From assembly GCA_003725745.1 (NCBI GenBank), contig RHDP01000001.1, forward strand, positions 5,249,501 through 5,313,500: a stretch of 64,000 bases of DNA, written 5' to 3'. This document shows, piece by piece, positions 10,766 to 56,724 of the stretch; positions within the stretch are counted from its first letter, which is position 1, and every line of letters starts with the position of its first letter. The translations under genes were made by a program, and so were the position numbers. The notes under the pieces are model-generated. The model saw nothing but the letters and a program-made list of their open reading frames with translations, did not search any database and was not told where the DNA came from. The DNA is from Streptomyces sp. I6 (GTDB lineage: Bacteria; Actinomycetota; Actinomycetes; Streptomycetales; Streptomycetaceae).

Positions 10766-11370
10766 GTGCTGGTCAAGTGGATTCGCTGCACCGTCGTGGA
10801 CCGTCGGGGGTTCGAGCGCGGGCAGCGGAAGTGGGCGGGGCTGCTGGGGGAGCCGGGCTTCCGGGGCAGGGGGGCGGCTGGAGCCGAGGGCGGCCGGGTG
10901 TCGCGCATGTGTTCGCCTTCTGGGAGACCCGTGCGTTCTACGACTCGTTCATGGCGCGGTCGCACGACCGCCTCGCGTCCGCCCAGTCGGGCACGTACCG
11001 GAATCTCCAGGCGAAACTCTTCGACCACCGGTTCGATGTGAAGACCGGATTCGAGCCCAGGTTCACGGACGCGGACGTGGTGCGCGTCGCTCACTGCAGG
11101 GTGCACCGGCACAGGGTCGAGCACTTCTCCCTGATGCAGGCGAAGGTGTGGAATCCGGCCATGGCGGGGTCCCCGGGCATGGTGCGGGGACTCTTCGGCG
11201 AAGCCCCGGGGAACGAGTTCCTGGTGCTGTCCATGTGGCAGTCGGCCGCTGAGCACGGCAAGTACCGGGTGGAGCGGGTGGAGCGGCTGTCCCTCAGGGC
11301 GCAGACGGAGGCGGACATAGCGGCGCTGGCCGGCGACGTGGTGGAGCTGGAGCCGTCCTGGACGGTGTGA
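10766..11370 (+). CDS. DUF4937-type protein, frameshifted in this sequence
   Basis: The reading frame from GTG 10766 starts 'VLVKWIRCTVVDRRGFERGQ' and continues to 'LLGEPGFRG'. The protein then resumes one frame over with 'GGGWSRGRPGVAHVFAFWE' and runs to the stop at 11370. Restoring one G in the runs at 10863-10866 or 10869-10874 gives a continuous protein of about 201 residues. That product has the DUF4937 N-terminal domain ('YDSFMARSHDRLA') and a second similar segment with 'VRVAHCRVHRHRVEHF' and 'VLSMWQSAAEH', suggesting a duplicated ferredoxin-like (ABM/DabB-like) fold. No function is known. Undercalling of a homopolymer is likelier than a real pseudogene because both halves are intact. 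Confidence 0.7.
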
Positions 11371-11726
11371 CTCCCTCCGGTGGGCGGTGTGACCACCCCG
11401 AATCCACCGGGCCGCCGCAGGCCGGGGAGGCGTACGGCGTCGCCGCGGTGGACGTGCCGACCGGCTCGCAGGTCCGTTCCGGGATCCGCGGCTGTGGACG
11501 CGTCGTGCGAGGGCCCGCGGCACCCGCGCTGCGGTCTTCCGCTCCGATCCGGTGCCCTTGGGGCAGGCTCAGGACGTCCGGTACATCCGCGCCGAGCCCC
11601 GCCGAGAGCCTGCCGAAAGCCCTGGTGGCTCCGCCGGGGGCACTGCCGGCCGCCCGGCCGTGCGGGGTGCCGGGTGATGGCCCTCGGGGGGCGGGCGCCG
11701 CGGGTGGCGGCACTAGGGTTTGTCCT
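11371..11726. other. Intergenic region, no gene seen
   Basis: These 356 bp have open frames on both strands, but they are Arg/Pro-rich with no recognisable protein and no initiation signal. The histidine phosphatase promoter presumably lies near the right end. Confidence 0.5.
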
Positions 11727-12386
11727 ATGGCACGACCACGGCGCATCGTCCTCGTCCGGCACGGCGAGTCGGAGGGCAACGCCGACGACTCGGTCTACGA
11801 GCGCAAGCCCGACCACGCGCTGAGCCTCACCGACCGCGGATGGCGCCAGGCCGAGGACACCGGAAGCAGGCTGCGCACCCTTTTTGGTCATGAGCGCGTC
11901 AGTGTCTATGTGTCGCCCTACCGGCGCACCCACCAGACGCTCCACGCCTTCCGGCTCGATCCCCGGCTCGTCCGGGTCAGGGAAGAGCCGCGACTGCGAG
12001 AGCAGGACTGGGGGAACTGGCAGGAGCGGGACGCCGTGCGGCTTCAGAAGGCCTACCGCGACGCCTACGGCCACTTCTTCTACCGCTTTCCGCAGGGCGA
12101 GTCGGGAGCGGACGTCTACGACCGGGTCGGGGCGTTCCTGGAGAGTCTCCACCGGAGCTTCGAGTCCCCGGAGCACCCGCCCAACGTCCTGCTCGTCACC
12201 CACGGGCTGACCATGCGCCTCTTCTGCATGCGCTGGTTCCACTGGACGGTTCCCGAATTCGAGTCGCTCTCGAATCCCGGCAACGGCGAGACGAGGATGC
12301 TGCTGCTCGGCGAGGACGGCCGGTACGCGCTGGACAGGCCCTTCGAGCGCTGGTGCACACCCGAGTGGTACGGGATCACCGGATAG
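11727..12386 (+). CDS. Histidine phosphatase (phosphoglycerate-mutase superfamily)
   Basis: The 219-residue protein has the RHG signature 'LVRHGESEGNADDS' at residues 8-20, the second arginine in 'VSPYRRTHQT', the acidic 'LREQDWGNWQ' and the C-terminal catalytic histidine in 'LLVTHGLTMRLF'. Branch-1 histidine phosphatases hydrolyse diverse phosphoesters, so the substrate cannot be named. ATG 11727 follows 'ggtttgtcct', with no strong ribosome site. The gene sits 12 bp before the ADP-ribosylglycohydrolase and is likely co-transcribed with it. Confidence 0.88.
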   Translation: MARPRRIVLVRHGESEGNADDSVYERKPDHALSLTDRGWRQAEDTGSRLRTLFGHERVSVYVSPYRRTHQTLHAFRLDPRLVRVREEPRLREQDWGNWQERDAVRLQKAYRDAYGHFFYRFPQGESGADVYDRVGAFLESLHRSFESPEHPPNVLLVTHGLTMRLFCMRWFHWTVPEFESLSNPGNGETRMLLLGEDGRYALDRPFERWCTPEWYGITG

Positions 12387-12398
12387 AGTGGCGGTGCG

Positions 12399-13306
12399 AT
12401 GACCGCTGACTCCACTCTCGACCGGCGCCTCGGCCGCGCCTTGGCCAGCCTGCGCGGGCTGTCCGTGGGAGACGCCCTGGGCTCCCAGTTCTTCGTACCT
12501 TCCCACCATGCGCTGCTGAAGCGGCGGGCCCTGCCGTCCGGACCCTGGCAGTGGACCGACGACACCGAGATGGCCTGCTCGGTGGTGGCCGTGCTGGCCG
12601 CCCACAGCCGCATCGACCAGGACGCACTCGCCCGGTCCTTCGCCGAGCACCACGACTTCGACCGGGGCTACGGTCCCGCCGTGAACCGGATGCTGAGGCT
12701 GATCCGCGAGGGCGGCGACTGGCGAGAACTGGCTGCGGGACTCTTCAGCGGACAGGGCTCGTGGGGTAACGGGGCCGCCATGCGCATCGCCCCGCTCGGC
12801 GCCTGGTACGCCGACGACCCCGAGCAGGCCACCCATCAGGCCGAGATCTCCGCGTACACGACGCACCAGCACCGCGAGGCCGTCGCCGGGAGCATGGCGG
12901 TCGCCGCGGCCGCTGCGCTCGCGGCCTCCGAGGACGGGACTCCGCCGCCCGGCGAACTGCTCGACGGGGTGATCGCACTCGTGCCGCGCAGCGCCGTGGG
13001 GCAGGGTCTCCGCCGGGCGCGGGACATGCTCGACTACGGCGACGTCGGCACGGTCGCGGCGGTGCTCGGCCGGGGACGCCGCACGAGTGCGCACGACACC
13101 GTCCCGTTCGCGCTCTGGTCCGCGGCCCGGGCCCTCGGGGACTTCGAGGAGACCTTCTGGACCACCGCCCAGGTGGGCGGGGACGTCGACACGACCTGCG
13201 CCATCGCGGGGGAGTGGTCGCGGCTGCCAGGGCCGGGGCTCCGCCCGCGGCCTGGCTGGAGCGGACCGAGGCCCTGCCCGGTTGGCTGCCCGCCCGGGTC
13301 GCCTGA
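12399..13306 (+). CDS. ADP-ribosylglycohydrolase, frameshifted near the 3' end
   Basis: This enzyme of the DraG/ADP-ribosylglycohydrolase family removes ADP-ribose from proteins or small molecules using two Mg ions. It shows 'LGLSVGDALGSQF'-type opening ('RGLSVGDALGSQF'), the metal motif 'QWTDDTEMA', 'GSWGNGAAMRIAPLG' and 'GGDVDTTCAIAG'. After 'CAIAG' the frame is lost. Adding one G to the run 13208-13212 restores 'GVVAAARAGAPPAAWLER' and ends with 'PGWLPARVA' and a stop at 13304-13306, giving about 302 residues. This is the family's normal C-terminus, so a sequencing deletion is likely. It lies just behind the histidine phosphatase. Confidence 0.85.
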
Positions 13307-14575: not shown

Positions 14576-14678
14576 ACCGGCCGTACCAGGAGTACTGTGC
14601 CGACCGGCCCGACCTCCGGTCGCACTTATGTGCCACCCGCCGATGCCCATCGCACCGGCGTTTGATAAAAATCCACCC

Positions 14679-15862: not shown

Positions 15863-15863
15863 C

Positions 15864-16713: not shown

Positions 16714-18884
16714 TTACGCCTGAACTGCCAGGACCAGCGGAAACACCCCCTCAGCTCCCGCCCGCCGCAGCAGTCGTGACGCGACGGCGAGGGTCCAGCC
16801 GCTGTCCGAAAGATCGTCCACAAGCAGCACCGGGCCGCCGGCCTCCGTCACCGTCCGTGCCAGATCCGGTGGAACGGCGAAGGCCTCGTGCAGCCCGCGC
16901 ACCCGCTGCGCGCTGTTCGTGCGTGAGATGTGCCGGTCCTCCGAACCCGCCGCGTACTCGATGGTGCCGAGGAAGGGCATCCTCCCGACCTCCGCGATGC
17001 GGGTTCCGAGCGATCCCACGAGTTGTGGCCTGGTGCGCGAGGCGACGGCCACGACCCCGACGGGGCGGGCCGGAGCGTCGGGGCCCCCGAGGACCAACCA
17101 CCAGGGCCCCGGGCCCAGTCGGCCAGCACACTCACGACGGCGTCGGCCACATCGGCGGGCACCGGGCCGTCCGGGGACTGCGCGGCGAGCATCGGCCGCA
17201 GTCGGTTGCCCCAGCCGATGTCGGAGAGCCGGCCCAGCGCCCGGCCGGTGAAGGCCTGCTCGCCCGCGGGGATACGGCCCTTCAGGTCCACACCGACCGC
17301 CGGAAGGCCCGTGGGCCACATCTTGCGGGCCTCCACCTCCACACCCGGGCGCCCCAGTTCGCCACGTGCGGCGTCCAGTGCGGCAGCGGACACCGAGGCG
17401 TCGAAGCGGGGCCCCGCGCAGTTGTCGCAGCGTCCGCAGGGGGCAGCGTCCCCGTCGTCGAGCTGCAGGCGCAGGAACTCCATCCGGCAGCCCACGGCCG
17501 AGGCGTAGTCGCGCATCGCCTGCTGCTCGCTCTCACGTTGACGCGCCACCCACGCATAGCGCTGGGAGTCGTACACCCACGGCCGGCCCGTCGTCGTCCA
17601 GCCGCCCTTGACCCGGTGCACGGCTCCGTCCACGTCGAGGACCTTGAGCATGGTCTCCAGACGTGTGCGCCGCAGCTCGACGAGCGGCTCCAGCGCAGGG
17701 AGCGACAGGGGACGCTCAGCGTGCGCCAGGACGTCGAGAGTGCGCCGCACGAGGTCCTCGGACGGGAAGGCGACCGAGGCGAAGTACTGCCAGATCGCCT
17801 CGTCCTCCTTGCCGGGCAGGAGGAGCACCTCGGCGTGCTCCACACCGCGCCCGGCGCGGCCCACCTGCTGGTAGTAGGCGATGGGCGAGGAGGGCGATCC
17901 CAGGTGGACGACGAAGCCGAGGTCGGGCTTGTCGAACCCCATCCCGAGCGCGGAGGTGGCGACCAGGGCCTTCACCCGGTTCGCCAGCAGGTCGTCCTCC
18001 GCCTGCTGCCGCTCCGCGTTCTCCGTGCGGCCCGTGTACGACGCCACCGTGTGCCCGCAGTGCCGCAGATACGCCGTCACCTCCTCCGCGGCGGCGACGG
18101 TGAGGGTGTAGATGATCCCCGAGCCGGGCAGGTCACCGAGGTGATCGGCGAGCCAGGCCAGCCGGTGGGCGGCGTCGGGGAGTTGGAGCACGGCGAGGCT
18201 CAGGCTCTCCCGGTCGAGCGGCCCGCGCAGCACCAGCGCGTCGGTGCCCGCACCCGTGCCCAACTGCTCGGCGACGTCGGCGGTCACTCGGGCGTTGGCG
18301 GTCGCCGTCGTGGCCAGCACCGGGACACCGGGCGCCAGATCGGCGAGCATCGTGCGCAGCCGCCGGTAGTCGGGCCGGAAGTCATGGCCCCAGTCGGAGA
18401 TGCAGTGCGCCTCGTCCACCACGAGCAGACCGGTCGCCGCTGCGAGTTTCGGCAGCACCTGGTCGCGGAAGTCCGGGTTGTTCAGCCGCTCGGGACTGAC
18501 CAGCAGCACGTCGACCTCGCCCGCTGCCACCTCGTCCTGGACCGACTCCCACTCCTCCGTGTTCGACGAGTTGATCGTCCTCGCCCGGATGCCCGCTCGC
18601 GCGGCGGCCTCCACCTGGTTCCGCATGAGCGCGAGCAGCGGCGAGACGATCACCGTCGGGCCGCTGCCCTGCTCACGGAGCAGGGAAGTGGCGACGAAGT
18701 ACACGGCGGACTTGCCCCAGCCCGTCCGCTGCACGACCAGCGCCCGGCGTTTCTCCGCCACGAGTGCCTCGATGGCCCGCCACTGGTCCTCGCGGAGTTT
18801 CGCGGCGCCGGTGGTGTCCCCGACGAGGCGTGCGAGTACCGCGTCGGCCGACGCCCTGAGCTGTGCGTGATCTGCGTTGGTCAT
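16714..18884 (-). CDS. recQ: RecQ helicase fused to a phosphoribosyltransferase domain (frameshifted)
   Basis: RecQ is a 3'-5' DNA helicase for recombination and fork repair. The N-terminal motor has '[14 protein letters not shown]' (Walker A), '[16 protein letters not shown]', 'LATTATAN' and '[11 protein letters not shown]'. A zinc-binding segment 'CGRCDNC' follows. After '[10 protein letters not shown]' the frame breaks. One extra base in the run 17081-17089 joins it to '[18 protein letters not shown]' and '[17 protein letters not shown]', which is a PRPP-binding loop of a type I phosphoribosyltransferase. The repaired protein is about 723 residues with stop at 16714. This RecQ-PRT fusion seems characteristic of actinobacteria. 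ATG 18884 faces the DUF4192 gene across a 26-bp palindrome. Confidence 0.88.
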
Positions 18885-22218: not shown

Positions 22219-24445
22219 ATGCTCCAGGCCATCGGACTCACCAGCACCACCCGCCGGTACCTCACGCGTGCCGTTGACGATCTGACCTTCGAGGCGAGGC
22301 CCGGCGACGTCACCGCCCTTCTCGGGGCCAGGGGTTCGGGCAAGAGCACGGCCCTGCGCCTGATGCTCGGGCTCGAGGCCGGCCGCGGCGTCGCGTACTT
22401 CCGCGGACGCCCCCTGCACGCCATGGCGAGCCCCGCCCGGGAGGTGGGTGTGCTGCTGGGCGACGTTCCGGGGCATCCCGCCCGCACCGCACGGGGGCAG
22501 CTCCGCATGCTCTGCGCGGCCGCCGGAGTGCCGGTGTCGCGCGCGGACGACATGCTCGACCTCGTGGGCATCGCCGCCCTGCGGGACGCGCGACTCGGCT
22601 CCCTCTCGCTCGGCATGGACCGCAGACTGGGACTGGCCTCCGCGCTGTTGGGCGACCCGCACACGCTGCTGCTCGACGCCCCGTCCCGGGGACTCTCGCC
22701 GCGCGAGCACAGCTGGCTGTTCGGTCTGCTGCGCGCTCATGCCGCGCACGGCGGGACCGTCCTCTACACGACCGCGGACCCCAAGGAGGCCGCCGGGACC
22801 GCGGATCGCGTGGTCACGATCGACAACGGCCGGCTCGTCGCCGACCAGGACGCCGCCGACTTCGCCCGCACCCGGCTCCGGCCGCGCGTCGCGGTCAGGA
22901 CGCCGCACGCCGGAAGGCTCGCCGCGGCACTGAGCCGTGAGTCGGGGGCCGGGCGCCGCTCCGTCGAAGTCGTCACCGAGGGCGGGAACCGGCTCTCCGT
23001 GTACGGCAGCAGCTGTGCGGAGATCGGTGACGCCGCCTTTCGGCACGGCGTTCCCGTCCACCGACTCGCCGAGGAGATCGGTGACGCCGGCCCCCGCCCG
23101 CCGTCCGTACCCGGGGCCATGGGCGAGGCCGCGGACGGCACCGCCCTCGCGGGGCCGGCCGGACCCGGTCCCGCACCCGCTCCGGGCGGTTGTGCCGGCC
23201 GCCGGGTCACCGCGCGGGATGCCGCCCGGCCGGCGTCCCTGGACGGCGGTTCCCCGTATGCGCCCGCGGCCGGCTCGGAGCCCCATCCCGCGAGGCCGCA
23301 GGGCCCCGGTCACCACCCCGCCGCTCCTCGCCGGGCGGCGCCCCGTCCGCCTGCCGTGCACCGCCCGGACGCCGGCCCGGATCCGGCCGCCCCGCCGCCC
23401 CGCCCCGAACTCCGCGATCCCGGCCGGGATCCCGGCCGGGATCCCGACGGCGCCCATGCCCTCCTCGTCGGGGTCTCCGGCCCCGGCGCCGCCCATCGCG
23501 AGGCCCGAGCCCCCGCAGTGCCCGGCCCGGACGTCTCCGACGGCGCCCGCCCCGACGGCGCGCCGCGCACCGAACCCTTCCGGAGCGGTCGGGGAGTCTT
23601 GCGCGGCGGCCGGGCTGCCGCCGGCGCGCAGCCCTCCCTCCGTCCCCGCCGGGGGCACCCCGCGCCGGGCGGCCTCCGTCGCAGCCGCTCCAGCCGCTGC
23701 GGTACGAACTGCGCCGCATCCTCGGGGTCCGCACGACGTATCTGGTCGTCGCGGCCGTTCTCGTCTCCTCGGCCGCGCTCTCCGCCCTGCTCGCGTACAC
23801 GGGTCGCACCCCGCTGCCGGGCCTCCTCGCGGCCTGGCCCGATGCGTTGCCGCTGCCTCCGGCGGCCCTGGGGGCCGGTGTGCTCGGAGCCCTCTCGTTC
23901 GGGAGGAGTTCCGCTATCCCGCGCTGGCGGCCGCCCGCGGAACCGTCCCCCGGCGGCTCGGCCTGCTCCTCGCCAAGCTGGCGGTGACGGCCGCGGCCGC
24001 CCTCGCGATCGGCGGCGCCGTCCTCGTGCTCGACGCCCAGGTGCTGTGGCTCCTCTACGGGTCCGACCCCGTTCCAGTTCTGCGGAACTGGCCGGCTCTC
24101 TGCCTGAGTTGGGCCGGACTCCTGGTCGGCAGCGCCTGGTCGGGCCTGCTCGCCGCGGGCACCTTCCGCCGCACGGTCGCGGGTGTGGTCGCGGTGCCGG
24201 CCGTACCCGTGGTGGTCGTCCCCTCCTGCAGAAGGCGCTCGCCGGTCCGTCCGGACGCTCGCTCGGGGATTCCCGGACCGTCTGGGGAGCTGACCTGGCT
24301 GGGCTGGCCGCACGAGGTGGACCGCTGGTTGCTCGCGGCGCTGCGAGCGCTCGCGCAACCCGTGGGAACGGCAATGGCGTTGTCGTTCTCTATTCTGCTC
24401 TGCTCGTACCTGCTCATCGGACTTCGCGGCAAAGCTCGTTGGTGA
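22219..24445 (+). CDS. ABC transporter: ATPase fused to membrane domain, at least two frameshifts
   Basis: From ATG 22219 (AAGGGAA upstream) an ABC ATPase runs to about residue 300. Walker A is normal ('GARGSGKST') but the signature is degenerate ('LGSLSLGM') and Walker B ends 'LLLDAPSRGL', with Ala where the catalytic Glu belongs. A Pro/Ala-rich linker follows, then a membrane region in other frames: 'LRYELRRILGVRTTYLVV' from about 23695 and, after one missing G at 23901-23903, 'EEFRYPALAAARGTVPRRL' to the stop at 24443-24445. Another indel must lie in the linker (about 23100-23650). Repaired, it is one protein of about 740 residues with four to six transmembrane segments. The substrate is unknown. 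It ends 160 bp before whiH. Confidence 0.7.
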
Positions 24446-32524: not shown

Positions 32525-34112
32525 CGGGCGATCACCAGATGCTGGCCCTCGTGCTGTTCAGCGCGTTCATCGCGGTGACCCTGGCCATCACCACGTGGGT
32601 CAGCCGCAACCGGCGCGGTTCGGCCGAGGAGTTCTACGCCGGCGGGCGGCTGTTCTCCCCGATGGAGAACGGCTTCGCGATCGCGGGCGACTACATGTCG
32701 GCGGCCTCGTTCCTCGGCATCTCCGGGCTGATCGCACTGTACGGCTACGACGGAATGCTCTACTCCGTGGGCTTTCTCGTCGCCTGGCTGGTCGTGCTGT
32801 TCCTGGTGGCCGAACTGGTCCGCAACTGCGGCCGCTTCACGCTCGCCGACGTCGTCGCCAGCCGGATGAGCGAGCGTCCCGTCCGCATCGCGTCGGGAAC
32901 CTCCTCGGTCACCGTTTCCGTTCTCTATCTGGTCGCGCAGATGGTGGGCGCAGGCAGCCTGGTGGCCCTGCTCCTCGGAGGGACGAGCGACTCCGCGCGC
33001 TCGTGGACCGTCGTCGGCGTCGGCGCGCTGATGGTGGTCTACGTCTCGATGGGGGGATGAGGGCCACCACCTGGATCCAGATCGTCAAGGCCGTACTGCT
33101 GATGGCCGGCGCCACCGCCCTCACCGTGCTCGTCCTGGCCCGCTTCCACGGAGATGTCAACGGAATGCTCGACTCCGCCGCCGCCCAGAGCGGACACGGC
33201 AAGGACTTCCTGTCGCCCGGGCTGCGGTACGGCACGGACTGGACCGCCCGTCTGGACTTCATCAGCCTCGGCCTCGCCCTGGTGCTCGGCACCGCCGGTC
33301 TGCCGCACATCCTGTCCCGCTTCTACACCGTTCCCACGGCCCGGGCGGCCCGCCGCTCGGTCGTCTGGTCCATCGCGCTCATCGGCAGCTTCTACCTGAT
33401 GACGATCGTGCTCGGGTTCGGCGCGGCCGCCATCCTCGGCACCGACGCGGTGCGCTCGTCGAACGCCGCGGGAAACACGGCGGTCCCGCTGCTCGCCCTC
33501 GACCTCGGCGGTGGGGCGGGCTCCACCGGAGGCACGGTGCTGTTCGCCGTCGTCGCGGCGGTCGCGTTCGCGACGATCCTCGCCGTCGTCGCCGGCATCA
33601 CCCTGGCGTCGTCGGCGTCCGTCGCCCACGACCTGTACGCGTCGCTGAAGAGGCGGCACGGCAGAGGGCACAGCGAGGTCGCGGTGGCACGCGTCGCCGC
33701 CGCGGTCATCGGCGCTGCCGCCATCGCGCTCGGCCTGCTCGCCCGCGACCTCAACGTGGCGTTCCTGGTGGGCCTCGCCTTCGCGGTCGCGGCGTCGGCG
33801 AACCTCCCGGTGCTGCTCTACTCGCTGTTCTGGCGCGACTTCACCACCCGGGGCGCGGTGTGGTCGGTGTACGGCGGCCTCGTTCCGGCGGTGCTGCTGG
33901 TGCTTCTCTCGCCCGTGGTGTCGGGCAGTCCCGAGGCGCTGTTCCCCCACCTGGACTTCCAGTACTTCCCGCTGCAGAACCCCGGCCTCGTCTCCATTCC
34001 GCTCGGCTTCCTCGCCGGCTGGCTCGGCACGGTGACGTCCGCGGAGGAACCGAACGAGGCCAGGCACGCGGAGACGGAGGTCCGGGCGCTGACGGGAGCG
34101 GGCGCGGTCTGA
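32521..34112 (+). CDS. Sodium:solute symporter, ActP-like (frameshifted)
   Basis: This is an SSS-family cation/monocarboxylate symporter of about 531 residues and 13 or so membrane helices. The N-terminal part has 'RRGSAEEFYAGGRLFSPMEN' and 'AIAGDYMSAASFLGISG'. The frame then stops at 33058 after 'VYVSMGG'. Adding one G to the six-G run 33051-33056 joins it to 'MRATTWIQIVKAVLLM', the family's conserved 'GGM(R/K)ATTW.Q..KA..L' segment, and continues to 34112. Acetate or another short carboxylate is the likely substrate. A CitA-like sensor kinase lies convergently next to it, so carboxylate sensing may control uptake. Confidence 0.88.
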
Positions 34113-34186: not shown

Positions 34187-35883
34187 TCAGTGCCTCGGGC
34201 CTGTCCGCCGTCCCGCCGAATCCACCGCCGTGAGGGCCCGGTCCAGTCCTGGGTCGGCCAGCGCCTCGGGCAGCACGACGGTGAACTCCGCGCCCCCGCC
34301 CATCGCCGCGCGGGCCTCGGCCACCCGGGCGGTACCGCCCTGCCGTTCCGCGAAGCGCCGGACCAGCGCCAGCCCCAGGCCGCGTCTGCCGTGCGCCGGC
34401 GGCTCCTTGGTGGACCAGCCCTCGGTGAAGACCAGTCCGCGCAGTTCCCCCGGCACCCCGGGCCGCTGTCCGAGACCCGCAGGACGACGGTGCGGTCCTC
34501 GGCGAGCGCCTCGATCTCGATGCGCGGGTCCTCGGACCCGGCGGCCGCGTCCAGTGCGTTGTCGACGAGGTTGCCCACGACGGTCACCAGGCCGCGCGGG
34601 TCGACGAGCCGGTCCGGCAGCAGCGTGCCGGACGCGATCCGCAGCGACACGCCCCGCTCGGCCGCCACTGTCGCCTTGCCGACCAGCAGCGACGCCAGCA
34701 GGGGATCGTGGATCTTCTCCGTGACCTGCTCCGCCGTGGCCCGGTGCACACCCACGGACTCGGTCACGAACTCGGCCGCCTCCTCGTGCATCCCCAGTTC
34801 CAGCAGTCCGAGCAGCGTGTGCATGCGGTTGGCATGCTCGTGGTCCTGGGCGCGCAGCGCGTCGATCAGGCCGCGGGTGGCGTCGAGTTCGCGGCCCAGC
34901 CGCTCCAGTTCGGTGCGGTCGCGCAATGTGGCGACGGCGCCGCCGTCATCCGTCGGCATCCGGTTGGCGATCAGTACGCGAGGACCCCGTACCGTCACCA
35001 GGTCCTCGCCCGTGATCCGTCCGGCCAGCACGTCCGTGGTGCGGCCCGGTCCGAGCGCGTCCCGGAGCAGGCGGCCGCCCGCTTCGGGACCGACGCCCAG
35101 CAGCCGCTGCGCCTCGTCGTTCATCAGCCGGATCCGGCCCGCCCCGTCGAGGGCGACCACCCCTTCCCGGAGGGCGTGGAGCATGGCCTCGCGCTCGGCG
35201 AGCAGCGCCGAGATGTCGGAGAAGGCGAGGTCGTGGGTCTTGCGCTGCAGCCGGCGGGAGACCATGTAGGAGGCGAGGGCCCCGGCGGCGAGGGCGCCGC
35301 CCGCGTAGGCGAGGAGCCCGGGGATCGCGTCGAGCAGCCGGTCCCGGACGCTGTCGTACGCGATACCGACCGAGACCGCGCCGACGATCCTGCCGTCTTC
35401 GTCGTGCAGCGGGACCTTTCCCCGGGCCGAACGGCCGAGCGTCCCGCTCTCGATGCCCATCACATGCCGGCCCGCGAGCGCCTGGCCGGGGTCGGTGGAG
35501 ACGACCCGGCCGATCTTGTCGGCGTCCGGGTGGGACCAGCGCACCCCGCGCCGGTCCATGATCACGACGTACTCGGCCCCGGTGCTCCGCCGGATCCTCT
35601 CCGCCTCCGCCTGGACTGGGCCGCCCTCGGACGGTTCCGAGGCCAGAAGGGCCCCAACCACCTGCGGTGACGCCGTCGTCTCCGCGATAGCCAGCGCGCG
35701 GCGCATCGCCTGGTCGTCCAGCTGGGAGCTGAGCGGTGCCAGGAACAGGCCGGTGGCCAGGACGGCGACGCCGGCGGTGGTGGCCAGCTGCATCAACAGG
35801 ACCTGTGCGAAGACCCGACGCGGCCAGCGGAACCGCCTCGGTCCGGGGGACACGCCTGCGGGGCCGGTCGATGCGGGGCTCAT
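34187..35883 (-). CDS. CitA/DcuS-type sensor histidine kinase, orphan (frameshifted)
   Basis: The kinase has a first membrane helix ('QVLLMQLATTAGVAVLATG'), an extracytoplasmic PAS/CACHE sensor ('AEYVVIMDRRGVRWSHPDAD'), a second helix, a cytoplasmic PAS domain and a SpoB-type dimer helix. The phospho-accepting His is about residue 348 in 'DHEHANRMH'. The N box is 'VGNLVDNALDAA'. After 'RVSDSGPG' one base is missing in the C-run 34456-34459; restoring it gives 'VPGELRGLVFTEGWSTK' and 'GRRGLGLALVRRFAERQGG'. This class usually senses citrate or C4-dicarboxylates. No response regulator gene adjoins it. The start is ATG 35883 or GTG 35892, neither with a clear ribosome site. Confidence 0.85.
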
Positions 35884-36279
35884 CCGAGGCACGGTATGCG
35901 TGCCGGACGGCGCTCGGGAATCCCCGGACGGGCGCCGCGGGGGCGATGCGGCGCGAAACCGGACGAGCCGGGTGCGCCGGCCGCCCCGCTCCGCGCTTGT
36001 GACACCGCCGGTGCACGGAGGGCGCGAACGCGGTGTGGGACCGGCCGGAAGGCGGCCGCGGGTCAGCGGCGGTGTGCCGGTGTCTCCGGCGCCACCGCGG
36101 GGCCGGAGAGGACCGCGCCGGCCGCCGCGCGGCCGCGCCCGGCTGTCAGCGGTGCACGCGGCGGCACTTGACCCGATCGCCCCCCGCCCGATCGCCTAGG
36201 CGGCGCGGTCGCCGAGGGCACGGCCCGGCCATCGGGGAGCTCGGTCAGGCGCCGACCGGTGGCGGGTCGCCGTCGCGGG

Positions 36280-36423
36280 GCCTTCACCCCCACGCTCTGC
36301 GCGGCACGGGTGGTCGGCTGGAGCGCCAACATCGCGGAGCAGGCGCAGGATTCGAAGATCATCCGACCCGCCGCGCGCTATGTCGGGCCCTGGCCGCCGC
36401 AGCCGCTGCCGGAGGCCTGCTGA
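36280..36423 (+). pseudogene. C-terminal remnant of a citrate synthase
   Basis: Translation from 36280 gives '[20 protein letters not shown]', then '[19 protein letters not shown]' and a stop at 36421-36423. This is the conserved end of citrate synthases, including the C-terminal 'RVxGWxAH..EQ' helix and 'RIIRPxARYVG'. Nothing recognisable as the preceding about 320 residues (including catalytic His/Asp motifs) is found upstream in any frame, so the 5' part is deleted. It lies between the orphan kinase and the CobW gene. Confidence 0.8.
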
Positions 36424-36498
36424 ACGGCCCGCACGACCCTGCCCGTGTCCTGGCCCCATATCCTGGGCCGAAGCACGAGCAGCCCAGGAGGTCCCGCC

Positions 36499-37788: not shown

Positions 37789-40235
37789 CTATGACACCGG
37801 ACCCGCCAGGGCCGCGACCGGCTTGGCCAGCGGGGTGCCCGAGCCGTCCCGGCGGGGGTCGATCTCCGGAAGCTCCGCCGGGGAGCCGTTCTTCTGCGCC
37901 GCGCGCGCCGCGCTCACCCCTGCCCAGGCGAAGACCAGCCGGTCCTCGCCCTTCAGGAAGCGCTGGCAGCGCACACCGCCGGTGGCCCGGCCCTTGCGCG
38001 GGTACTGGTCGAACGGCGTCAGCTTCGCCGTCATCACCGAGTCGTCCAGTGTCCCGGCGGCTCCCGCGACCGTGAAGACCACCGCCTCCGCTGCCGGGTC
38101 AACCGCGGTGAACGAGATCACTTCGGCTCCCTCAGTGAGCTTGACCCCCGCCATGCCGCCCGCCGGCCTGCCCTGCGGCCGCACCTGCGAGGCCTGGAAG
38201 CGCAGCAGTTGCGCGTCGGAGGTGATGAAGACCAGGTCCTCATCGCCCGTGCGCAGTTCGGCGCCGCCGACGATCCGGTCACCCTCCTTGAGTGCGATGA
38301 CCTCGAGTGCGTCCTTGTTGGCCGGGTAGTCCGGCACCACCCGCTTGACCACGCCCTGGAGCGTGCCCAGCGCCAGGCCCGGGGAGGACTCGGCCAGACC
38401 GGTCAGGCAGACGACCGTCTCGTCCGCTTCCAGCGACAGGAACTCGGAGATCTGCGCGCCGCCCGAGAGGTTCGGCGCCTGCGCCGACTCCGGGAGCTGC
38501 GGGAGGTCGATCACCGACAGCCGGAGCAGCCGGCCCGCCGAGGTCACCACGCCCACCTCGCCGCGCGCCGTGGCCGCCACCGAGGAGACGACCACGTCGT
38601 GCTTCGCGCGCTTGCCCGCCTGCGGCGGCGGTTCGGCGGTGACCGTACGGGCGAGCAGTCCCGTGGAGGACAGCAGTACCCGGCACGGGTCGTCCGCGAC
38701 CTGCAGTGAGGCGGCGGGGGCCGGGGTGCCGGTGGACTCCAGCAGGACCGTGCGCCGGGGGTGCCGAACTTCTTGGCCACCGAAGCCAGTTCGGCCGAGA
38801 CGAGCTTGCGCAGCTCGGCGTCCGACTCCAGGATCTTCGTCAGTTCGGCGATCTCGTCCTTGAGCCTGTCGCGCTCGGCCTCCAGCTCGATCCGGTCGAA
38901 CCTGGTGAGCCGGCGCAGCGGGGTGTCCAGGATGTACTGCGTCTGGACGTCGCTGAGGGAGAAGCGCTCCATCAGCCGCTCCTTGGCCTGCGCCGCGTTC
39001 TCGCTGGAACGGATCAGGCGGATGACCTCGTCGATGTCGACCAGCGCGACGAGCAGGCCCTCGACCAGATGGAGCCGGTCCCGTCGCTTCCCGCGGCGGA
39101 ACTCGCTGCGGCGGCGCACCACGTCGAAGCGGTGGTCGAGATAGACCTCCAGCAGCTCCTTGAGGCCCAGCGTCAGCGGCTGACCGTCGACCAGTGCCAC
39201 GTTGTTGATGCCGAAGGACTCCTCCATCGGCGTCAGCCTGTACAGCTGCTCCAGGACGGCCTCGGGGATGAAACCGTTCTTGACCTCGATGACCAGGCGC
39301 AGCCCGTGCTCGCGGTCCGTGAGGTCCTTGACGTCGGCGATGCCCTGCAGCTTCTTCTGGCCGACCAGGTCCTTGATCTTGGAGATCACCTTCTCCGGGC
39401 CGACGCTGAACGGCAGTTCGGTGACGACGAGGCCCTTGCGGCGCGCCGTTACGCTCTCCACCGAGACCGTGGCGCGGATCTTGAACGTGCCGCGGCCGGT
39501 CTCGTACGCGTCCTTGATCCCGGACAGGCCGACGATCCGGCCGCCGGTGGGCAGGTCGGGTCCCGGCACGTGGCGCATCAGCGTCTCCAGGTCCGCCCCC
39601 GGGTGCCTGATCAGATGGCGGGCGGCGGCGATCACCTCGCCGAGGTTGTGGGGCGGCATGTTGGTCGCCATGCCGACCGCGATCCCCGACGCGCCGTTCA
39701 CCAGCAGGTTCGGGTACGCCGCCGGCAGCGCCAGGGGCTCGCGCTCCTGCCCGTCGTAGTTGGGGGCGAAGTCGACCGTGTCCTCGTCGATGGACTCGGT
39801 CATCAGGCTCGTCGCGTCGGCCATCCGGCACTCGGTGTAGCGCATCGCCGCCGGAGGGTCGTCGTTGCCCAGGGAGCCGAAGTTGCCGTGGCCGTCGACC
39901 AGCGGCAGCCGCATCGAGAAGGGCTGGGCCATGCGCACCAGGGCGTCGTAGATCGACGCGTCGCCGTGCGGATGGAGCTTTCCCATCACCTCGCCGACGA
40001 CCCGGGCGCACTTCACATAGCCCCGGTCGGGACGCAGCCCCATCTCGTTCATCTGGTACACGATCCGGCGGTGCACCGGCTTCATGCCGTCCCGGGCGTC
40101 GGGCAGGGCGCGGGAGTAGATCACCGAGTACGCGTACTCGAGGAAGGAGCCCTGCATCTCGTCGACGACGTCGATGTCGAGGATCCTCTCCTCGAAGTCG
40201 TCGGGCGGCGGCGTCTTCGTGCTGCGGCGGGCCAT
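37789..40235 (-). CDS. parC: DNA topoisomerase IV subunit A (frameshifted)
   Basis: ParC is the DNA-cleaving subunit of topoisomerase IV. From ATG 40235 the breakage-reunion domain reads 'RALPDARDGMKPVHRRIVY' and 'GKLHPHGDASIYDALVRMAQ', with the catalytic Tyr in 'AAMRYTECR' (the quinolone region is also here). After 'ASVAKKFGTP' one C is missing from the G/C run at 38757-38761 (plus-strand G). The next frame continues 'RRTVLLESTGTPAPAASLQV' through the C-terminal beta-pinwheel to the stop at 37789. The repaired length is about 815 residues. An essential-type gene is unlikely to be broken, so a sequencing error is probable. It pairs with parE 6 kb away. Confidence 0.92.
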
Positions 40236-40422: not shown

Positions 40423-41810
40423 ATGCCCATGGGTCACACGGCCACAGCCCGGGCCGGCTCCGGAGGCCTGACAGCGAGCGAGCACCGCCTGGCCAACGGC
40501 CTGCGCGTGGTGCTCTCCGAGGACCACCTGACCCCGGTCGCCGCGGTGTGCCTCTGGTACGACGTCGGCTCCCGCCACGAGGTCGAGGGCCGCACCGGCC
40601 TGGCCCACCTGTTCGAGCACCTGATGTTCCAGGGCTCCGCCCAGGTGCCGGGCAACGGCCACTTCGAGCTGGTGCAGGGGCCGGCGGCTCGCTGAACGGC
40701 ACCACGAGCTTCGAGCGCACCAACTACTTCGAGACCATGCCCGCCCACCAGCTGGAGCTCGCGCTCTGGCTGGAGGCCGACCGCATGGGCTCCCTGCTGA
40801 CCGCTCTCGACGACGAGTCCATGGAGAACCAGCGGGACGTCGTGAAGAACGAGCGCCGCCAGCGCTACGACAACGTGCCGTACGGCACCGCCTTCGAGAA
40901 GCTGACCGCGCTGGCCTACCCCGAGGGCCACCCCTACCACCACACCCCGATCGGCTCGATGGCCGACCTGGACGCGGCGACGCTGGAGGACGCGCGGAAC
41001 TTCTTCCGCACCTACTACGCGCCGAACAACGCGGTCCTGTCGGTCGTCGGCGACATCGACCCGGAGCAGACGCTCGCCTGGATCGAGAAGTACTTCGGGT
41101 CCATCCCCATGCACGACGGCAAGCAGCCGCCGCGCGACGGCTCGCTCCCGGAGATCATCGGCGAGCAGCTGCGCGAGGTGCTGGAGGAGGAGGTTCCGGC
41201 ACGGGCCCTGATGGCCGCGTACCGCCTCCCGCACGACGGCACCCGCGCGGCCGACGCCGCCGACCTGGCGCTGACCATCCTCGGCGGCGGTGAGTCGTCC
41301 CGGCTGCACAACCGGCTGGTCCGCCGCGACCGTACGGCCGTCGCCGCCGGCTTCGGCCTGCTCCGCCTCGCCGGCGCCCCCTCGCTGGGCTGGCTGGACG
41401 TGAAGACCTCCGGGGGCGTCGAGGTCCCCGGCATCGAGGCCGCGGTCGACGAGGAGCTGGCGCGGTTCGCCGCCGAGGGCCCCACGCCGGAGGAGATGGA
41501 GCGCGCCCAGGCCCAGCTCGAGCGGGAGTGGCTGGACCGCCTCGGCACCGTCGCGGGCCGCGCCGACGAGCTGTGCCGGTACGCCGTGCTCTTCGGCGAC
41601 CCGCAGCTGGCGCTGAGCGCCGTCCAGCGGGTGCTCGACGTCACGGCCGAGGAGGTGCGGGCCGTCGCCGCGGCGAGGCTGCGCCCGGACAACCGGGCGG
41701 TGCTGGTGTACGAGCCGGCCGCGCCCGCGGACGACGCCGGGAACGCCGGGGACGCCGAAGGCGCCGGGGACGCCGGGGACAACGACGACGCAGAGGGGAC
41801 GGACCAGTGA
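40423..41810 (+). CDS. M16-family zinc peptidase, catalytic subunit (frameshifted)
   Basis: The N-terminal M16 domain has the inverted zinc motif HxxEH in 'GLAHLFEHLMF', followed by 'LVQG'. The frame then ends at 40695, but one extra G in 40677-40680 joins it to 'AGGSLNGTTSFERTNYFETM' and on to 41810, giving about 462 residues. The distal glutamate ligand is expected near 'DVVKNERRQRYDN'. ATG 40423 ('MPMGHTATARAG') has AAGGGA six bases upstream. It overlaps the next M16 gene by four bases, and the pair most likely forms a heterodimer like the mitochondrial processing peptidase. It is divergent from parC. The acidic tail is Gly/Asp-rich. Confidence 0.88.
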
Positions 41811-50909: not shown

Positions 50910-50967
50910 CGTCCGGCCCGCCCCGGTCCCAGTCCCCCGGAAACAACGGAAAGGCTGTCACGCCCCC

Positions 50968-51988: not shown

Positions 51989-52767
51989 TCAGTCCCGCCG
52001 AGAGGTCCGCACGACGGTGAAGACCGCCCCTCGTGGTCGGCCACCGTCGCCTGCCGGCCGCTGGTGCCCTCGTGCGGTTCGCGCACGACGTGGCCGCCGA
52101 GACCCACCACCGCGGCCGCGGCCGCGTCGGGGTCCTCGACCTCGAAGGAGGTCATCCAGTGCGAGCCCCTGTCCCGCGGCAGCGCGTGGCCCACCCCGTG
52201 GATCGAGGCCACCGGGCGGTCGTCCAGGCGCAGCGTCAGCCGGTCGGACCCGACCGGGACCACGGGTTCGAGGTCGTAGCCGAAGACCGACTCGTAGAAC
52301 TTGCCGACCGCCGACGTCTCCCGTGTCATCAGCTCGTTCCAGACGGGTGTGCCGTGGGTGCCGAAGATCGCGGTACCCGTGTGCGCCGAGGCCTGCCAGG
52401 CGCCGAAGACCGCGCCCTCCGGGTCGGCGGCGATGACGAGCCGTCCCGCGTCCGCCGCGTCGAGCGGTCCGACCCCGATCGTGCCGCCGCACATCCTGAT
52501 CTGCTCGGCGGTCTCGTCGACGTCGTCCGAGGCCATGTACGGCGTCCACGCGACCGGCAGACGGCGGTCCGCCGGGAGCCGGCCGATGCCGGCCACCTCC
52601 TTGCCGTCGAGCAGTGCCCGGACGTACGGGCCGAGTTGCTGCGGCCAGGGGAGGAAGTCCCAGCCGAACAGCTCCCGGTAGAAGTCCTGCGTCGCGTCGA
52701 GTCCGTGCACCATGAGGCTCACCCAGCAGGGCGCGCCGGGTCTGCGCCGAGTCGCCTCGGTCGTCAT
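51989..52767 (-). CDS. Two-domain VOC (glyoxalase/bleomycin-resistance fold) protein (frameshifted)
   Basis: Two VOC modules occur in tandem. The first begins 'PCWVSLMVHGLDATQDFYRE', the second 'WNELMTRETSAVGKFYESVF', like the mycobacterial 27-kDa antigen CFP30B group. The frame breaks after 'ATVADHEG'; one extra base in the run 52027-52030 gives 'AVFTVVRTSRRD' and the stop at 51989, for about 259 residues. Start ATG 52767 has AGGAG nine bases upstream; GTG 52773 is an alternative. VOC proteins range from dioxygenases to antibiotic-binding proteins, so no reaction is assigned. It converges on tdk. Confidence 0.82.
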
Positions 52768-53004: not shown

Positions 53005-53858
53005 ATGAAGCCCATCATCACCGCTACCGAACTCGCCGGCGAGTCAGCCGGTCGGCGGCCGCCGGTGCTGCTCGACGTCCGCTGGCAGCTCACTGCGGCC
53101 AAGGCCGCAGGTGCCGCACCCTTCGACGGCCGGGCCGCCTACGAGGCCGGCCACATTCCCGGGGCCGTGTACGTCGACCTCGACTCCGAACTGGCGGGAC
53201 CGCCCGGCCGGGGTGGCCGCCATCCGCTGCCGGACATGGAGACCTTCGGCGCGGCGATGCGCCGCGCGGGCGTGTCGGGTCGCGCCCCGGTCGTCGTCTA
53301 CGACGGGGGACAGGGCTGGGGCGCGGCGCGGGCGTGGTGGCTGCTGCGGTGGGCGGGACACCCGGACGTCCGTGTCCTGGACGGGGGTCTCGCGGCATGG
53401 AACGGCCCGTTGAGTACGGACGTCCCTCCCACGGCGCCGGGAGACTTCACGCCCGTGCCCGGGGCCTGCCGCTGCTCGACGCGGACGGGGCTGCGGCCCT
53501 CGCCCGGTCAGGGCTCCTGCTGGACGCCCGGGCCGCCGAGCGCTACCGGGGCGACGTCGAGCCGATCGACCCCGTCGGCGGGCACATCCCCGGCGCGGTC
53601 TCGGCTCCGACCACGGAGAACGTATCGGAGGGCGCCACCACCTTCCTGTCCCGCGAGGAACTGGCCTCCCGATTCAAGCGGCTGGGCGCCGAGGATGCCC
53701 GCGAGGTCGGGGTCTACTGCGGTTCCGGGGTCTCCGGCGCCCACGAGGTGCTGGCTCTGGCGATCGCCGGAATCCCGGCGGCGCTCTACGCCGGTTCCTG
53801 GTCGCAGTGGTCCTCCGACCCCGCCCGGCCGGTCGCGACGGGCCCCGACCCGCAGTAG
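53005..53858 (+). CDS. Rhodanese-type sulfurtransferase, two domains (frameshifted)
   Basis: This thiosulfate or 3-mercaptopyruvate sulfurtransferase has two rhodanese domains. The first has 'LLDVRWQL', 'YEAGHIPGAVYVDLD' and an inactive loop 'VVYDGGQGWGAARAWWLL'. The second carries the catalytic cysteine in 'VYCGSGVSGAHEVLAL'. The frame changes after 'DFTPVPG': one extra G in 53461-53464 joins it to 'GLPLLDADGAAALARSGLLL' and the stop at 53856-53858, for about 284 residues. ATG 53005 ('MKPIITATELAGE') is preceded by GAAGATGG. It is convergent with sepH. Confidence 0.88.
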
Positions 53859-54279
53859 CGGGAGGGGGCGGGCCGGCACCGGTGCCACGCGGGGCCGGCC
53901 GCTTCCCGGGCCCGCCGGTCGCGGAGAGGGCCGGATCGCCGGGCGGCGGGCCCGCTTGCCGAGAACCCGGGCCCGTTCGGGGCCGTCCGGCCGCTGGTGC
54001 CGCGTCAGGCGGGGTTCGCCCGTCAGGGAGCGGCGTCCGGCGCATGGGGATTCCCCCGGCCCTCCGGGCCGAGGGAGGCAGCGCAAGGCGCCGGATCGGC
54101 CTCGTCGCGGGCCTACTCGGTCGATTCGGTCGATTCGGTCGATTCGGCAACGCGGCGATGCGCCTGATTCCGCAACGCCGCGAGCCTGCCGTGCCGGGCG
54201 CCGCGACGGGGCGAAGGCCGCCCGATGCGGCACGGGAGCCTGTGTGGTGTGCGAACTCGCCCGATGCGGCACCGGAGAA
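53859..54279. other. Intergenic region between the sulfurtransferase and sepH
   Basis: No gene is seen. It contains the dispersed repeat at 53997-54237 and, inside it, three tandem copies of a 9-mer (TCGATTCGG, 54121-54147). Confidence 0.55.
53997..54237. repeat. Dispersed intergenic repeat, copy B
   Basis: Aligns with 15685-15862. Shared blocks include GTGCCGCG at the left end, GCCCGTCA, CGGCCTCGTCG and an identical 30-bp block at 54181-54210. Copy B is longer because of an insert (about 54035-54090) and the 9-mer triplication. Confidence 0.65.
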
Positions 54280-54328
54280 CGGTGGAGGGCTCATACGGAA
54301 ACCGCCAACCCGTAGGAGCCCTCCACCG
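54280..54328. terminator. Terminator of sepH
   Basis: A 13-bp stem CGGTGGAGGGCTC with GAGCCCTCCACCG (54280-54292, 54316-54328), with an inner TACGG/CCGTA pair, directly after the sepH stop on its strand. Confidence 0.8.
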
Positions 54329-54344
54329 CGATGGCCCGAAGGGG

Positions 54345-55381
54345 CTACTCCTGCTTCTTCCTGCGGGTGCCGAACACGATCTCGTCCCAGCTCGGCACCG
54401 CGGCCCGGCGGCCCGGACGGACGCCGTCGGCCTCGGCCTGCCGGTCCGTGGTTCCGGTGAGGCGGTCGCGGTGGCCGGTGACCGACCGCGGCATCAGGAC
54501 GTCCGCGTACGCCGAGCCCGCGCCGGCGGAGGCCGCGGGGGCGGGGGCTCCTCGGTCTCGGCCTCCTGGACGGGGTCGGCGGCGGGCCCGTCGGGGGCGG
54601 ACCGCTCCGGCACGACGAGGTCGCCCCGGAAGCTCGGCACCGCCTCCAGCAGGCTGGTCAGCGAGTCCCGCTCGGTCTCGTCGGCCTCGGGTGCCGCTGC
54701 CGGGAGCTGCGCGGGACGGTCCGGGGCGCGGTCGAGCGGCCGGTCCCGGGGGAGCCGGGCGATGCGCGGCACGAACGGGAAGCTCGGCTCATGGGCGACG
54801 CCGATCGTGTCGTCGGTCTCCCCGATCAGCGCCCGGGCCTCGTCGTCGGCGGCCTGGACGAGCCGGCGTGGCGGGTCGTACGTCCAGCTCGCCGAGTGCG
54901 GCTCTCCCGCCACCCGGTACACCAGCAGTACTTCCCAGGTGCCGTCGTCCCGGCGCCAGGAGTCCCACTGGACGGTGTCCTTCTCGGCGCCCCGCAGCAG
55001 CAGACGCTCCTGGACGGCCTCGCCGAGCTGCGGGCCGGTGTTCTCCCCGGGGCGCCGGACGGGCGTCTTGCGCGCACGCTCCGCCATGAACGCGCGCTCC
55101 GCGAGGACGGGCCCCTCGAACCGGCGCACCCGCTCCACGGGGATGCCGGCGAGCTGGGCGACCTCCTCCGCGGAGGCGCCCGCTCGTATACGCGCCTGGA
55201 TGTCGCGGGGGCGGAGGTGGCTCTCGACCTCGATCTCGATCTGGCCGAGACGCGCGCGGTCGTTGCGGACGGCGGCGCGCAGCCGTTCATCAATCGGAAG
55301 CGTGTACTCCGTGCTGTCCGCAGCCTTCAGCACCAGTCGTGTGCCGTCGTTCGAGACGGCCACGACACGCAGTTCGGGCAT
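54345..55381 (-). CDS. sepH: SepH, actinobacterial cell-division protein (DUF3071; frameshifted)
   Basis: SepH stimulates FtsZ ring formation. The protein starts 'MPELRVVAVSNDGTRLVLKA', carries a DUF3071 domain with a helix-turn-helix-like core ('LRPRDIQARIRAGASAEEVA', 'QLAGIPVERVRRFEGPV'), then 'DTVQWDSWRRDDGTWEVLL' and a Pro-rich region. After 'EEPPPP' one base is missing from the G/C runs at 54537-54547. Restoring it gives 'AASAGAGSAYADVLMPRSVT', then 'AAVPSWDEIVFGTRRKKQE' and the stop at 54345. That C-terminal motif is typical of the family, and the repaired length is about 345 residues. ATG 55381 has GGGAGG five bases upstream. Confidence 0.92.
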
Positions 55382-55849
55382 GGGGACCTCCCGGGTGGTG
55401 CCTGCCGACGTCACGTGCGTCGCTGCTTCCGCTAGTCGAGTGTGGCCTGCCCGGGTGCAGCCTGCCACAACCTTGCCGAGTTGCCCGGCGTGTCGGGCAT
55501 GGGCCCTGGACCGCCGTTATGGCACGGTTACCTGTTTGCAACGCAGGGTGACGGATGCCGCCACCTCGCACAGCAGGCGACCGTGCGGTGCCACGGCGCC
55601 GCCGGTTCGAGTGCCGCTTTCGGCCCCCTTTTCCCGGGGCCGTGCACCCGTGAGAGAGACCGGACCCAGGGCTCGTCACAGTACTCCATTCGGGCCATCG
55701 CGGTGGACCGGCGCGCCGCCGACTTTGTCGAGGAGAGGGCAAGTTCCGCTTCTCTACCCCGAATTCGCGGGTGGCAAGCTTCACAGAATCCACAGAACCG
55801 GAACTATTTCATTCGCCCATATGTCCCTTCATGGTGCACGGTGGAACAG
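55382..55849. other. Intergenic region upstream of sepH and the membrane protein
   Basis: These 468 bp separate divergent genes and should hold both promoters. The right half is AT-richer (for example CACAGAATCCACAGAACCGG near 55791). No gene or clear operator is recognised; the open frame through here lacks an initiation signal. Confidence 0.45.
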
Positions 55850-56724
55850 ATGGGTGAGCAGAGGGCGGAGATGCACCACACGAGGGACGACGGGGCGAGG
55901 GAACGGAAGGTGCGGCGGCTGGACCTGAGCGTTCCGCAGGTCGCGGGCAGTGCCCTCGCGGCGGTCGCGGCGGCGGTCCTCGCCTCCCGGCTCGGCGTCT
56001 ACGGAACGATCCTGGGCGCCGGGGTGGTGAGCGTGGTGGCCACCTGCGGCGGCTCCCTCTTCCAGCACCTGTTCCGGCGAACCGGCGAACAGATTCGCGG
56101 TGCCACCCGGCAGGCCCGGCCCAGGGGCCCGCGACCGCCGGGCGGTTCCCCGGAAGCAGGGCCTGCGGCGTACCGGGAGCCGCCCGCTCCCGGGGAGTTC
56201 GGCGAGGCGACCACCCACGGCACCCGCGTCCGCGGGCGGAGGCGCTCCGTGCTCGCCGCCGCGGTCGCCTTCGTCCTCGCCATGGTCGGCATCACCGGCT
56301 ACGAACTGGCCTTGGGCCGGGACCTCAGCGGCGGGCGGGGCACCACCGTGGGCACGGCCGTGCGGGGCGGGGGCGGCAACCCTGCCGACGACGGGTCCCC
56401 TTCACCCTCCGTGTCTCCGCGCGACGGCGGCGCGGAGCGGCAGGCGTACCCGGACGGAGGACAGGGCGGCTCCGGAACGGGTGCCGGCCCGTCCGGGTCC
56501 AGCGGCCCGGCGGGCGAGCACGGCACCGGCTCCGGCTCGGAGTCGGGTTCGGGCGACGGTCCGGGCGCGGACGGCGGTGCGGACGGTCCGGCCCCCGGGC
56601 CCTCCGGGTCCACCGGAGCGGAGAGTCCCGCCGAGTCGCCGGACCCGGCGTCCTCCGCGCCGGGGCCGTCCGCGCCGGAGACTCCGGGCAGAGCCCCGGG
56701 CCGGGTGCCGGCGCCAGTCCGTAG
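55850..56724 (+). CDS. Membrane protein with Gly/Ser/Pro-rich extracellular tail (3' end uncertain)
   Basis: I do not recognise a family beyond 'Streptomyces membrane protein'. The basic N-terminus 'RERKVRRLDLSVPQVAGSAL' leads into one hydrophobic stretch (about residues 30-65), and a second helix 'SVLAAAVAFVLAMVGITGYE' lies near residue 135. A long Gly/Ser/Pro tail follows. The plain reading frame stays open to 57091 and overlaps the convergent flavoprotein by over 300 bp. One extra G in the GGG run near 56699-56701 would give the end 'APGPGAGASP' with TAG at 56722-56724, which I prefer. Start choices are GTG 55841, ATG 55850 and ATG 55871. Confidence 0.6.

What the first reader, a model, noticed from the sequence alone, without database searches (positions are those of the whole stretch)
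10766..56724. Eleven or more conserved genes with single-base deletions in G/C runs
The DUF4937, ADP-ribosylglycohydrolase, recQ, ABC transporter (twice), symporter, CitA-like kinase, parC, M16 peptidase, VOC, sulfurtransferase and sepH genes each lose frame at a short G or C run. Each recovers family sequence in the frame expected for exactly one missing base. All events have the same sign and context. That argues for systematic homopolymer undercalling rather than gene decay, and it means standard gene calling here would report false truncations, including a false early end of parC and sepH.
Basis: partly seen in the sequence, partly recalled or inferred. Interest (0 to 1): 0.7.

Follow-up and report, generated by a model that had tools for sequence, protein, structure and literature searches.

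The report
Sequencing-error frameshifts in a Streptomyces assembly
This stretch of a soil bacterium's genome looks as if many important genes are broken, but the breaks are most likely the usual errors of long-read sequencing, in which repeated G or C letters are counted one short, so this is an ordinary artefact and not biology.

Summary
Each has the sign of one missing base. The "twice broken" ABC transporter gene (22219-24442) carries five such losses against S. pacificus, four of them clear in that relative only. I count 15 in the window, all of one sign.

The pattern is not local. In 463.5 kb of this assembly, 51 events have the missing-base sign and 1 the opposite (support from at least two of three relatives). 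Of the 51, 38 touch a G/C run of 4 or more, against 10% of matched random intervals. The loss rate per run climbs from 0.45% (inferred true length 4) to 3.5% (5) and 17% (6).

Single-copy parC, ligA and dapB are hit, and gyrA twice. No in-frame stop occurs in 15,028 aligned codons. Relatives have open frames at these sites.

Gene decay and programmed recoding fit poorly. The best reading is a long-read assembly without adequate polishing. No reads could be examined, so the platform is inferred.

The parts
10766..11367 (+). DUF4937 gene, reading frame broken once (interval 10862-10872, G run)
   Evidence: PF16291 in the intact relative
12399..13303 (+). ADP-ribosylglycohydrolase gene, broken once (13206-13207, G run)
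   Evidence: PF03747 in the intact relative
16717..18884 (-). RecQ-family helicase gene, broken once (17080-17084, run of 5)
   Evidence: TIGR00614 above cut-off
22219..24442 (+). ABC transporter gene, five losses against S. pacificus (near 23656, 23904, 24218, 24265, 24285); only 23904 is also supported by two other relatives
   Evidence: ABC_tran PF00005
32521..34109 (+). Sodium:solute symporter gene (MctC-type monocarboxylate transporter), broken once (33049-33050, run of 6)
   Evidence: NF058657 above cut-off
34229..35883 (-). DcuS/MalK/CitA-like sensor kinase gene, broken once (34454-34455, run of 4)
   Evidence: NF008298 (344 bits, below its cut-off 520)
37792..40235 (-). parC-like topoisomerase IV subunit A gene, broken once (38758-38759, run of 5)
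   Evidence: NF004044 above cut-off (parC-specific models below theirs)
40423..41807 (+). M16 peptidase gene, broken once (40675-40682, run of 4)
   Evidence: PF00675 and PF05193
52001..52722 (-). KbpA-like glyoxalase-fold (VOC) gene, broken once (52025-52038, run of 4)
   Evidence: NF053614 below cut-off; PF18029
53005..53855 (+). Sulfurtransferase (rhodanese) gene, broken once (53464-53471, run of 4)
   Evidence: PF00581
54348..55414 (-). sepH gene, broken once (54540-54541, run of 5)
   Evidence: NF040712 346.7 bits against cut-off 40

Best explanation
The frame breaks are errors of the assembly, not of the organism. Where the chromosome has a run of about four to seven identical G or C bases, the sequencing and consensus step counted one base too few in a fraction of cases that grows with run length. 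In a genome of about 71% G+C most runs are G or C and most DNA is coding, so the error appears as single-base frameshifts in roughly one matched gene in five or six. Shown here: the sign, the run context, the length dependence, the spread, the hits in genes known to be essential and the open frames in relatives. Inferred: that the cause is a long-read (most likely nanopore) assembly without adequate short-read polishing.
For: All 11 listed sites re-found with the missing-base sign. Over 463.5 kb, 51 missing-base and 1 extra-base event with support from at least 2 of 3 relatives (two-sided sign test p about 2e-14). 38 of 51 touch a run of 4 or more against 10.3% of matched random coding intervals; 18 of 51 a run of 5 or more against 2.6%. 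Loss rate by inferred source G/C run length: 4, 10 of 2235; 5, 20 of 567; 6, 16 of 92; 7, 2 of 3. In the own assembly ligA and dapB are found only as one copy split over two frames; parC likewise, with gyrA as the only other match; smc likewise, with two weak further matches. gyrA is broken twice and recF once, about 1.8 Mb from the window. No in-frame stop in 15,028 codons aligned to S. pacificus. Estimated completeness 87.42% in 2 contigs; 23 of 25 relatives are at 98% or more. Published precedent: nanopore systematic errors are mainly homopolymer indels that shift reading frames (passages of PMC8011154); deletion errors are most frequent after runs of four to five (section 6 of PMC12007338); 96% of errors in Flye nanopore assemblies were tied to homopolymers (passages of PMC11232133).
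Against: 13 of 51 events touch only runs of 1-3, so not every event is a long-run miscount. The run-length spectrum is not clearly depleted: runs of 5 are 221 per 100 kb here against 200-257 in three relatives; runs of 7 or more are 0.6 against 1.4-1.9, too few to test. Real slippage would also prefer long runs. The pooled nonsynonymous:synonymous codon ratio is higher in broken genes (0.65) than in intact ones (0.43); without the ABC transporter and KbpA-like genes it is 0.41, and the per-gene test over all genes gives p = 0.20. One relative (G001, 630 contigs) has a lower completeness, 79%. No raw reads or platform record were available.
Confidence: 0.97

Rival explanations
1. Real gene decay: the strain has lost frames by true single-base deletions in G/C runs, for example in a slippage-prone mutator lineage.
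For: True slippage also favours longer runs (established knowledge). The pooled nonsynonymous:synonymous ratio is higher in broken than in intact genes (0.65 against 0.43), though this is carried by two genes.
Against: Single-copy parC, ligA and dapB, and gyrA twice, would be lost together. No in-frame stop in 15,028 codons. 51:1 sign bias. Eight of the ten broken genes compared with S. pacificus keep protein identity of 0.93-0.97.
Confidence: 0.015
2. Programmed recoding or transcriptional slippage at G/C runs that restores the frames, so that the genome really holds split genes.
For: Most breaks lie on G/C runs with both frames conserved around them.
Against: Relatives have open frames through the same sites, so no site was seen conserved. 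Many unrelated genes would need it, and some sites have runs of only 1-3. In the scheme of PMC3711429 (passages) unclustered frameshifts validated by protein similarity are expected to be sequencing errors.
Confidence: 0.01
3. Phase variation by run-length change in contingency loci, with the assembly catching one state.
For: Run-length change is the mechanism of known contingency loci (established knowledge, recalled).
Against: Housekeeping genes are hit, the runs seen are at most 6 long, and nearly only one direction is seen.
Confidence: 0.005

Closest known systems
Systematic homopolymer indels of nanopore-only assemblies (Homopolish, PMC8011154; passages seen)
   Same: Residual single-base indels in homopolymers that shift reading frames and inflate pseudogene counts, recognisable by comparison with related genomes.
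   Different: Here the platform is not documented, and the runs are all G/C in a genome of about 71% G+C.
Gene-fragmenting errors in long-read assemblies (Kastor, PMC12007338; abstract and section 6 read)
   Same: Most indels are false deletions, most often after runs of four to five; many pseudogenes arise from errors in a tiny part of the assembly.
   Different: In their 59% GC example A/T runs dominate; here no event was placed on an A/T run, but few long A/T runs exist.
Frame transitions classified by GeneTack (PMC3711429; passages seen)
   Same: Non-conserved frameshifts confirmed by protein similarity, expected there to be mostly sequencing errors.
   Different: That survey groups frameshifted genes over 1106 genomes; here many genes of one assembly are hit.

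Membership tests
Systematic homopolymer undercalling in a long-read assembly | Deletions far outnumber insertions | tested here: met
   51:1 with support of at least 2 of 3 relatives; 15:0 in the window
Systematic homopolymer undercalling in a long-read assembly | Events sit in homopolymer runs more than chance | tested here: met
   38 of 51 touch a run of 4 or more, control 10.3%; 13 of 51 do not
Systematic homopolymer undercalling in a long-read assembly | Error rate rises with run length | tested here: met
   0.45%, 3.5%, 17%, 2 of 3 for inferred source lengths 4, 5, 6, 7
Systematic homopolymer undercalling in a long-read assembly | Spread over the assembly and blind to gene function, essential genes included | tested here: met
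   two regions of 463.5 kb and 80 kb examined; ligA, dapB, parC, smc, ilvC, glnD; gyrA and recF
Systematic homopolymer undercalling in a long-read assembly | Raw or independent accurate reads disagree with the consensus | not testable with these tools
   no reads are held
Pseudogene decay | In-frame stops and mixed lesions accumulate | tested here: not met
   0 in-frame stops in 15,028 aligned codons; nearly all events of one sign
Pseudogene decay | Relaxed selection in broken genes | tested here: inconclusive
   pooled ratio 0.65 against 0.43 (0.41 without two genes); per-gene Mann-Whitney p = 0.20 for 10 and 29 genes
Programmed frameshifting or transcriptional slippage | Frameshift site conserved in relatives | tested here: not met
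   predicted relative genes are open through these sites
Phase-variable contingency loci | Mostly surface or contingency genes with long tracts (definition recalled) | tested here: not met
   housekeeping genes with runs of at most 6

The most novel reading that the evidence does not exclude
The frameshifts are real, and the strain reads through them by transcriptional or ribosomal slippage at G/C runs, a G/C counterpart of the poly(A) slippage rescue described for insect endosymbionts (recalled). This is not formally excluded, because no reads, transcripts or proteins were examined.
Probability: 0.01. Interest if true: 0.9.

Novelty: not a real feature. Interest (0 to 1): 0.07.

Why it matters
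It matters for data quality only. Gene calls, pseudogene counts, completeness estimates and essential-gene inferences from this assembly are unreliable: 38 to 51 of 242 to 256 genes matched per relative contain a frame break, and parC, sepH, ligA, dapB and gyrA are among the broken ones. Anyone using it as a species representative should treat truncated or missing genes as suspect. A second genome in the set (G005) shows a milder version of the same signature.

Tried and rejected
Placing each lost base by pairwise DNA alignment to relatives of about 80% identity was too noisy, because third-position differences attract the gap; I replaced it with an interval from the switch of protein frames.

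A DNA gap inventory against the S. pacificus locus L116 shows gaps of both signs. The 'extra base' gaps lie between called genes or at the end of the kinase gene, for which S. pacificus gave no match. I did not use this inventory for the counts.

The homopolymer-length spectrum as a stand-alone test did not discriminate.

A flanking-base preference of the events was looked at. With runs written as C, those now 4 long have a G before them in 16 of 20 cases against 46% of background runs, but those now 5 long do not (7 of 16 against 55%). I draw no conclusion.

Dropped before the 51:1 count: 24 of 76 event clusters with one supporting relative only, of which 14 have the missing-base and 10 the extra-base sign. 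In the window these were near 23095, 23626 and 59403; the last is not confirmed by S. pacificus. Controls have two query relatives and so need 2 of 2, which is stricter than 2 of 3 for the own assembly; the single-comparison counts are therefore also given.

One alignment (G006_29, 712 aa) shows additional breaks of both signs at 33800 and 34120. I set it aside because that predicted relative gene is longer than its counterparts and runs into the neighbouring symporter gene.

The first run of the tblastn script stopped with an error after printing the gene counts; it was mended and rerun. Of the 45 broken genes of the 463.5-kb region, 30 were given to NCBIfam.

Identification of the organism: the one genome-contig scan returned no record of the window's own genome; its note says such records may be left out. 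The nearest named record is Streptomyces pacificus CWH03, 85-95% identical in the 11 DNA blocks over 300 bases. That the window is Streptomyces is inferred from these neighbours. A paper search for that name listed two papers that are not about its genome, judged from title and start of abstract.
Full report
What was checked. The window lies at bases 5,249,501-5,313,500 of the larger contig of a 7.05-Mb, two-contig assembly with an estimated completeness of 87.42%. Of 25 relatives searched, 23 have 98% or more; the others have 93% and 79%. The nearest named records are Streptomyces. The order of genes is well kept in five relatives of the same genus (G004, G005, G006, G009, G015), so orthologous stretches could be compared. 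A simple codon-usage gene caller covers 65.6% of the window with genes, against 80-86% in the five relatives.

The breaks are there. A first tblastn pass with proteins of the five relatives gave 5 to 8 broken genes out of 31 to 44 matched per relative, all with the sign of a missing base. The same pass between relatives gave none, except one break per query in G005. A second method, a protein-to-DNA alignment with a frameshift penalty written for this purpose, used proteins from three relatives (G015, G005, G009) over 480 kb each. In the window it found exactly the 11 listed sites with support from at least two relatives, and three events with single support. All 11 have the missing-base sign.

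The closest named relative, S. pacificus CWH03, was found by a genome scan, fetched and compared. Of 39 matched genes, 10 are broken, with 14 missing-base and no extra-base events; proteins of four other relatives show no break in S. pacificus itself. The sensor kinase gene gave no S. pacificus match in that call, but its break is supported by the other relatives. The ABC transporter gene has five losses against S. pacificus; four of these rest mainly on that one relative. The window total is therefore 15, all of one sign.

The pattern is wide and follows run length. Over 463.5 kb of the own assembly, 51 missing-base and 1 extra-base event have support from at least two of three relatives; 24 clusters with single support (14 and 10) were set aside. 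With two queries each, G015 as subject shows no such event, G009 one, and G005 eleven, all of the missing-base sign. For each of the 51 events the stretch in which the protein frame switches was computed. 38 of 51 touch a G/C run of 4 or more, against 10.3% of random coding intervals of the same lengths; for runs of 5 or more it is 18 of 51 against 2.6%. Taking the true run as one longer than the longest run seen at the break, the loss rate is 10 of 2235 for length 4, 20 of 567 for length 5, 16 of 92 for length 6 and 2 of 3 for length 7. No event was placed on an A/T run, but only 25 A/T runs of 4 or more lie in the aligned coding DNA, so this does not show base specificity. In a separate 80-kb region around gyrA, about 1.8 Mb from the window, one relative gave 19 missing-base and 2 extra-base events in 57 genes, and another 15 and 2 in 44 genes; the four extra-base events are at different places, so none is shared. 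Between the two relatives the counts are 1:1 and 0:0 in 43 genes each.

The hits include genes a cell cannot lose. Of 45 broken genes in the 463.5 kb, 30 intact relatives were named with NCBIfam. Among them are ligA, ilvC, smc, glnD and sepH, dapB, rsmD, eccC and eccD and the parC-like gene. Searching the whole own assembly found ligA and dapB only once each, split over two frames; parC likewise, with gyrA as the only other match. smc is also split, with two weak further matches. gyrA is itself broken twice and recF once. That parC, ligA, dapB and gyrA are essential is established knowledge, not tested here. I did not test for a second ilvC.

The genes do not look decayed. In 15,028 codons aligned to S. 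pacificus there is no in-frame stop; the alignment penalises stops, which weakens this a little. Eight of the ten broken genes keep protein identity of 0.93-0.97. The pooled nonsynonymous:synonymous codon ratio is 0.65 in broken and 0.43 in intact genes. Two fast genes (ABC transporter 1.43, KbpA-like 1.30) account for the difference, since the other eight give 0.41; the per-gene test gives p = 0.20 for 10 against 29 genes.

What it is. This is a described phenomenon. Homopolish (PMC8011154, passages) states that residual nanopore errors are mainly homopolymer indels that shift reading frames, and gives 151-5298 pseudogenes after Racon-Medaka on R9.4 against 12-136 in the true genomes. Kastor (PMC12007338, abstract and section 6) finds most indels to be false deletions, most frequent after runs of four to five. 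A polishing benchmark (PMC11232133, passages) ties 96% of errors in Flye assemblies to homopolymers. The platform of the present assembly is not known to me, so the cause is inferred.

Rivals. Real decay would require loss of several essential functions and would hardly give 51:1 of one sign without any stop codon. Programmed recoding would require conserved sites, and the relatives compared have open frames there. Phase variation does not fit housekeeping genes with runs of at most 6. None can be excluded formally without reads.

Verdict. Observation confirmed, interpretation supported, not a biological feature; low interest except as a warning about this assembly.

Noticed in passing
G005 stretches L028-L031 and L076-L095 (480 kb): A relative listed as one contig and 100% complete carries a milder version of the same signature: 11 missing-base events and no extra-base event supported by two relatives; 8 of 11 touch a run of 4 or more.
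   Followed up: partly
G000:C1:3370001-3450000 (L202-L205): The region around gyrA and recF has about 1.7 to 2 times the density of frame breaks per aligned kb of the 463.5-kb region, including two in gyrA and one in recF.
   Followed up: partly
window 52001-52722: The VOC gene near sepH resembles the AfsK-binding protein KbpA (133 bits, below the family cut-off of 250).
   Followed up: no
window 34229-35883: The DcuS/MalK/CitA-like sensor kinase gene seems absent at this locus in S. pacificus: its DNA match skips from 34360 to 36455 with 26 bases between the blocks.
   Followed up: no
L189: A record titled Microtetraspora glauca NRRL B-3735 holds a match of 67% identity among records titled Streptomyces, perhaps a mislabelled genome.
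   Followed up: no
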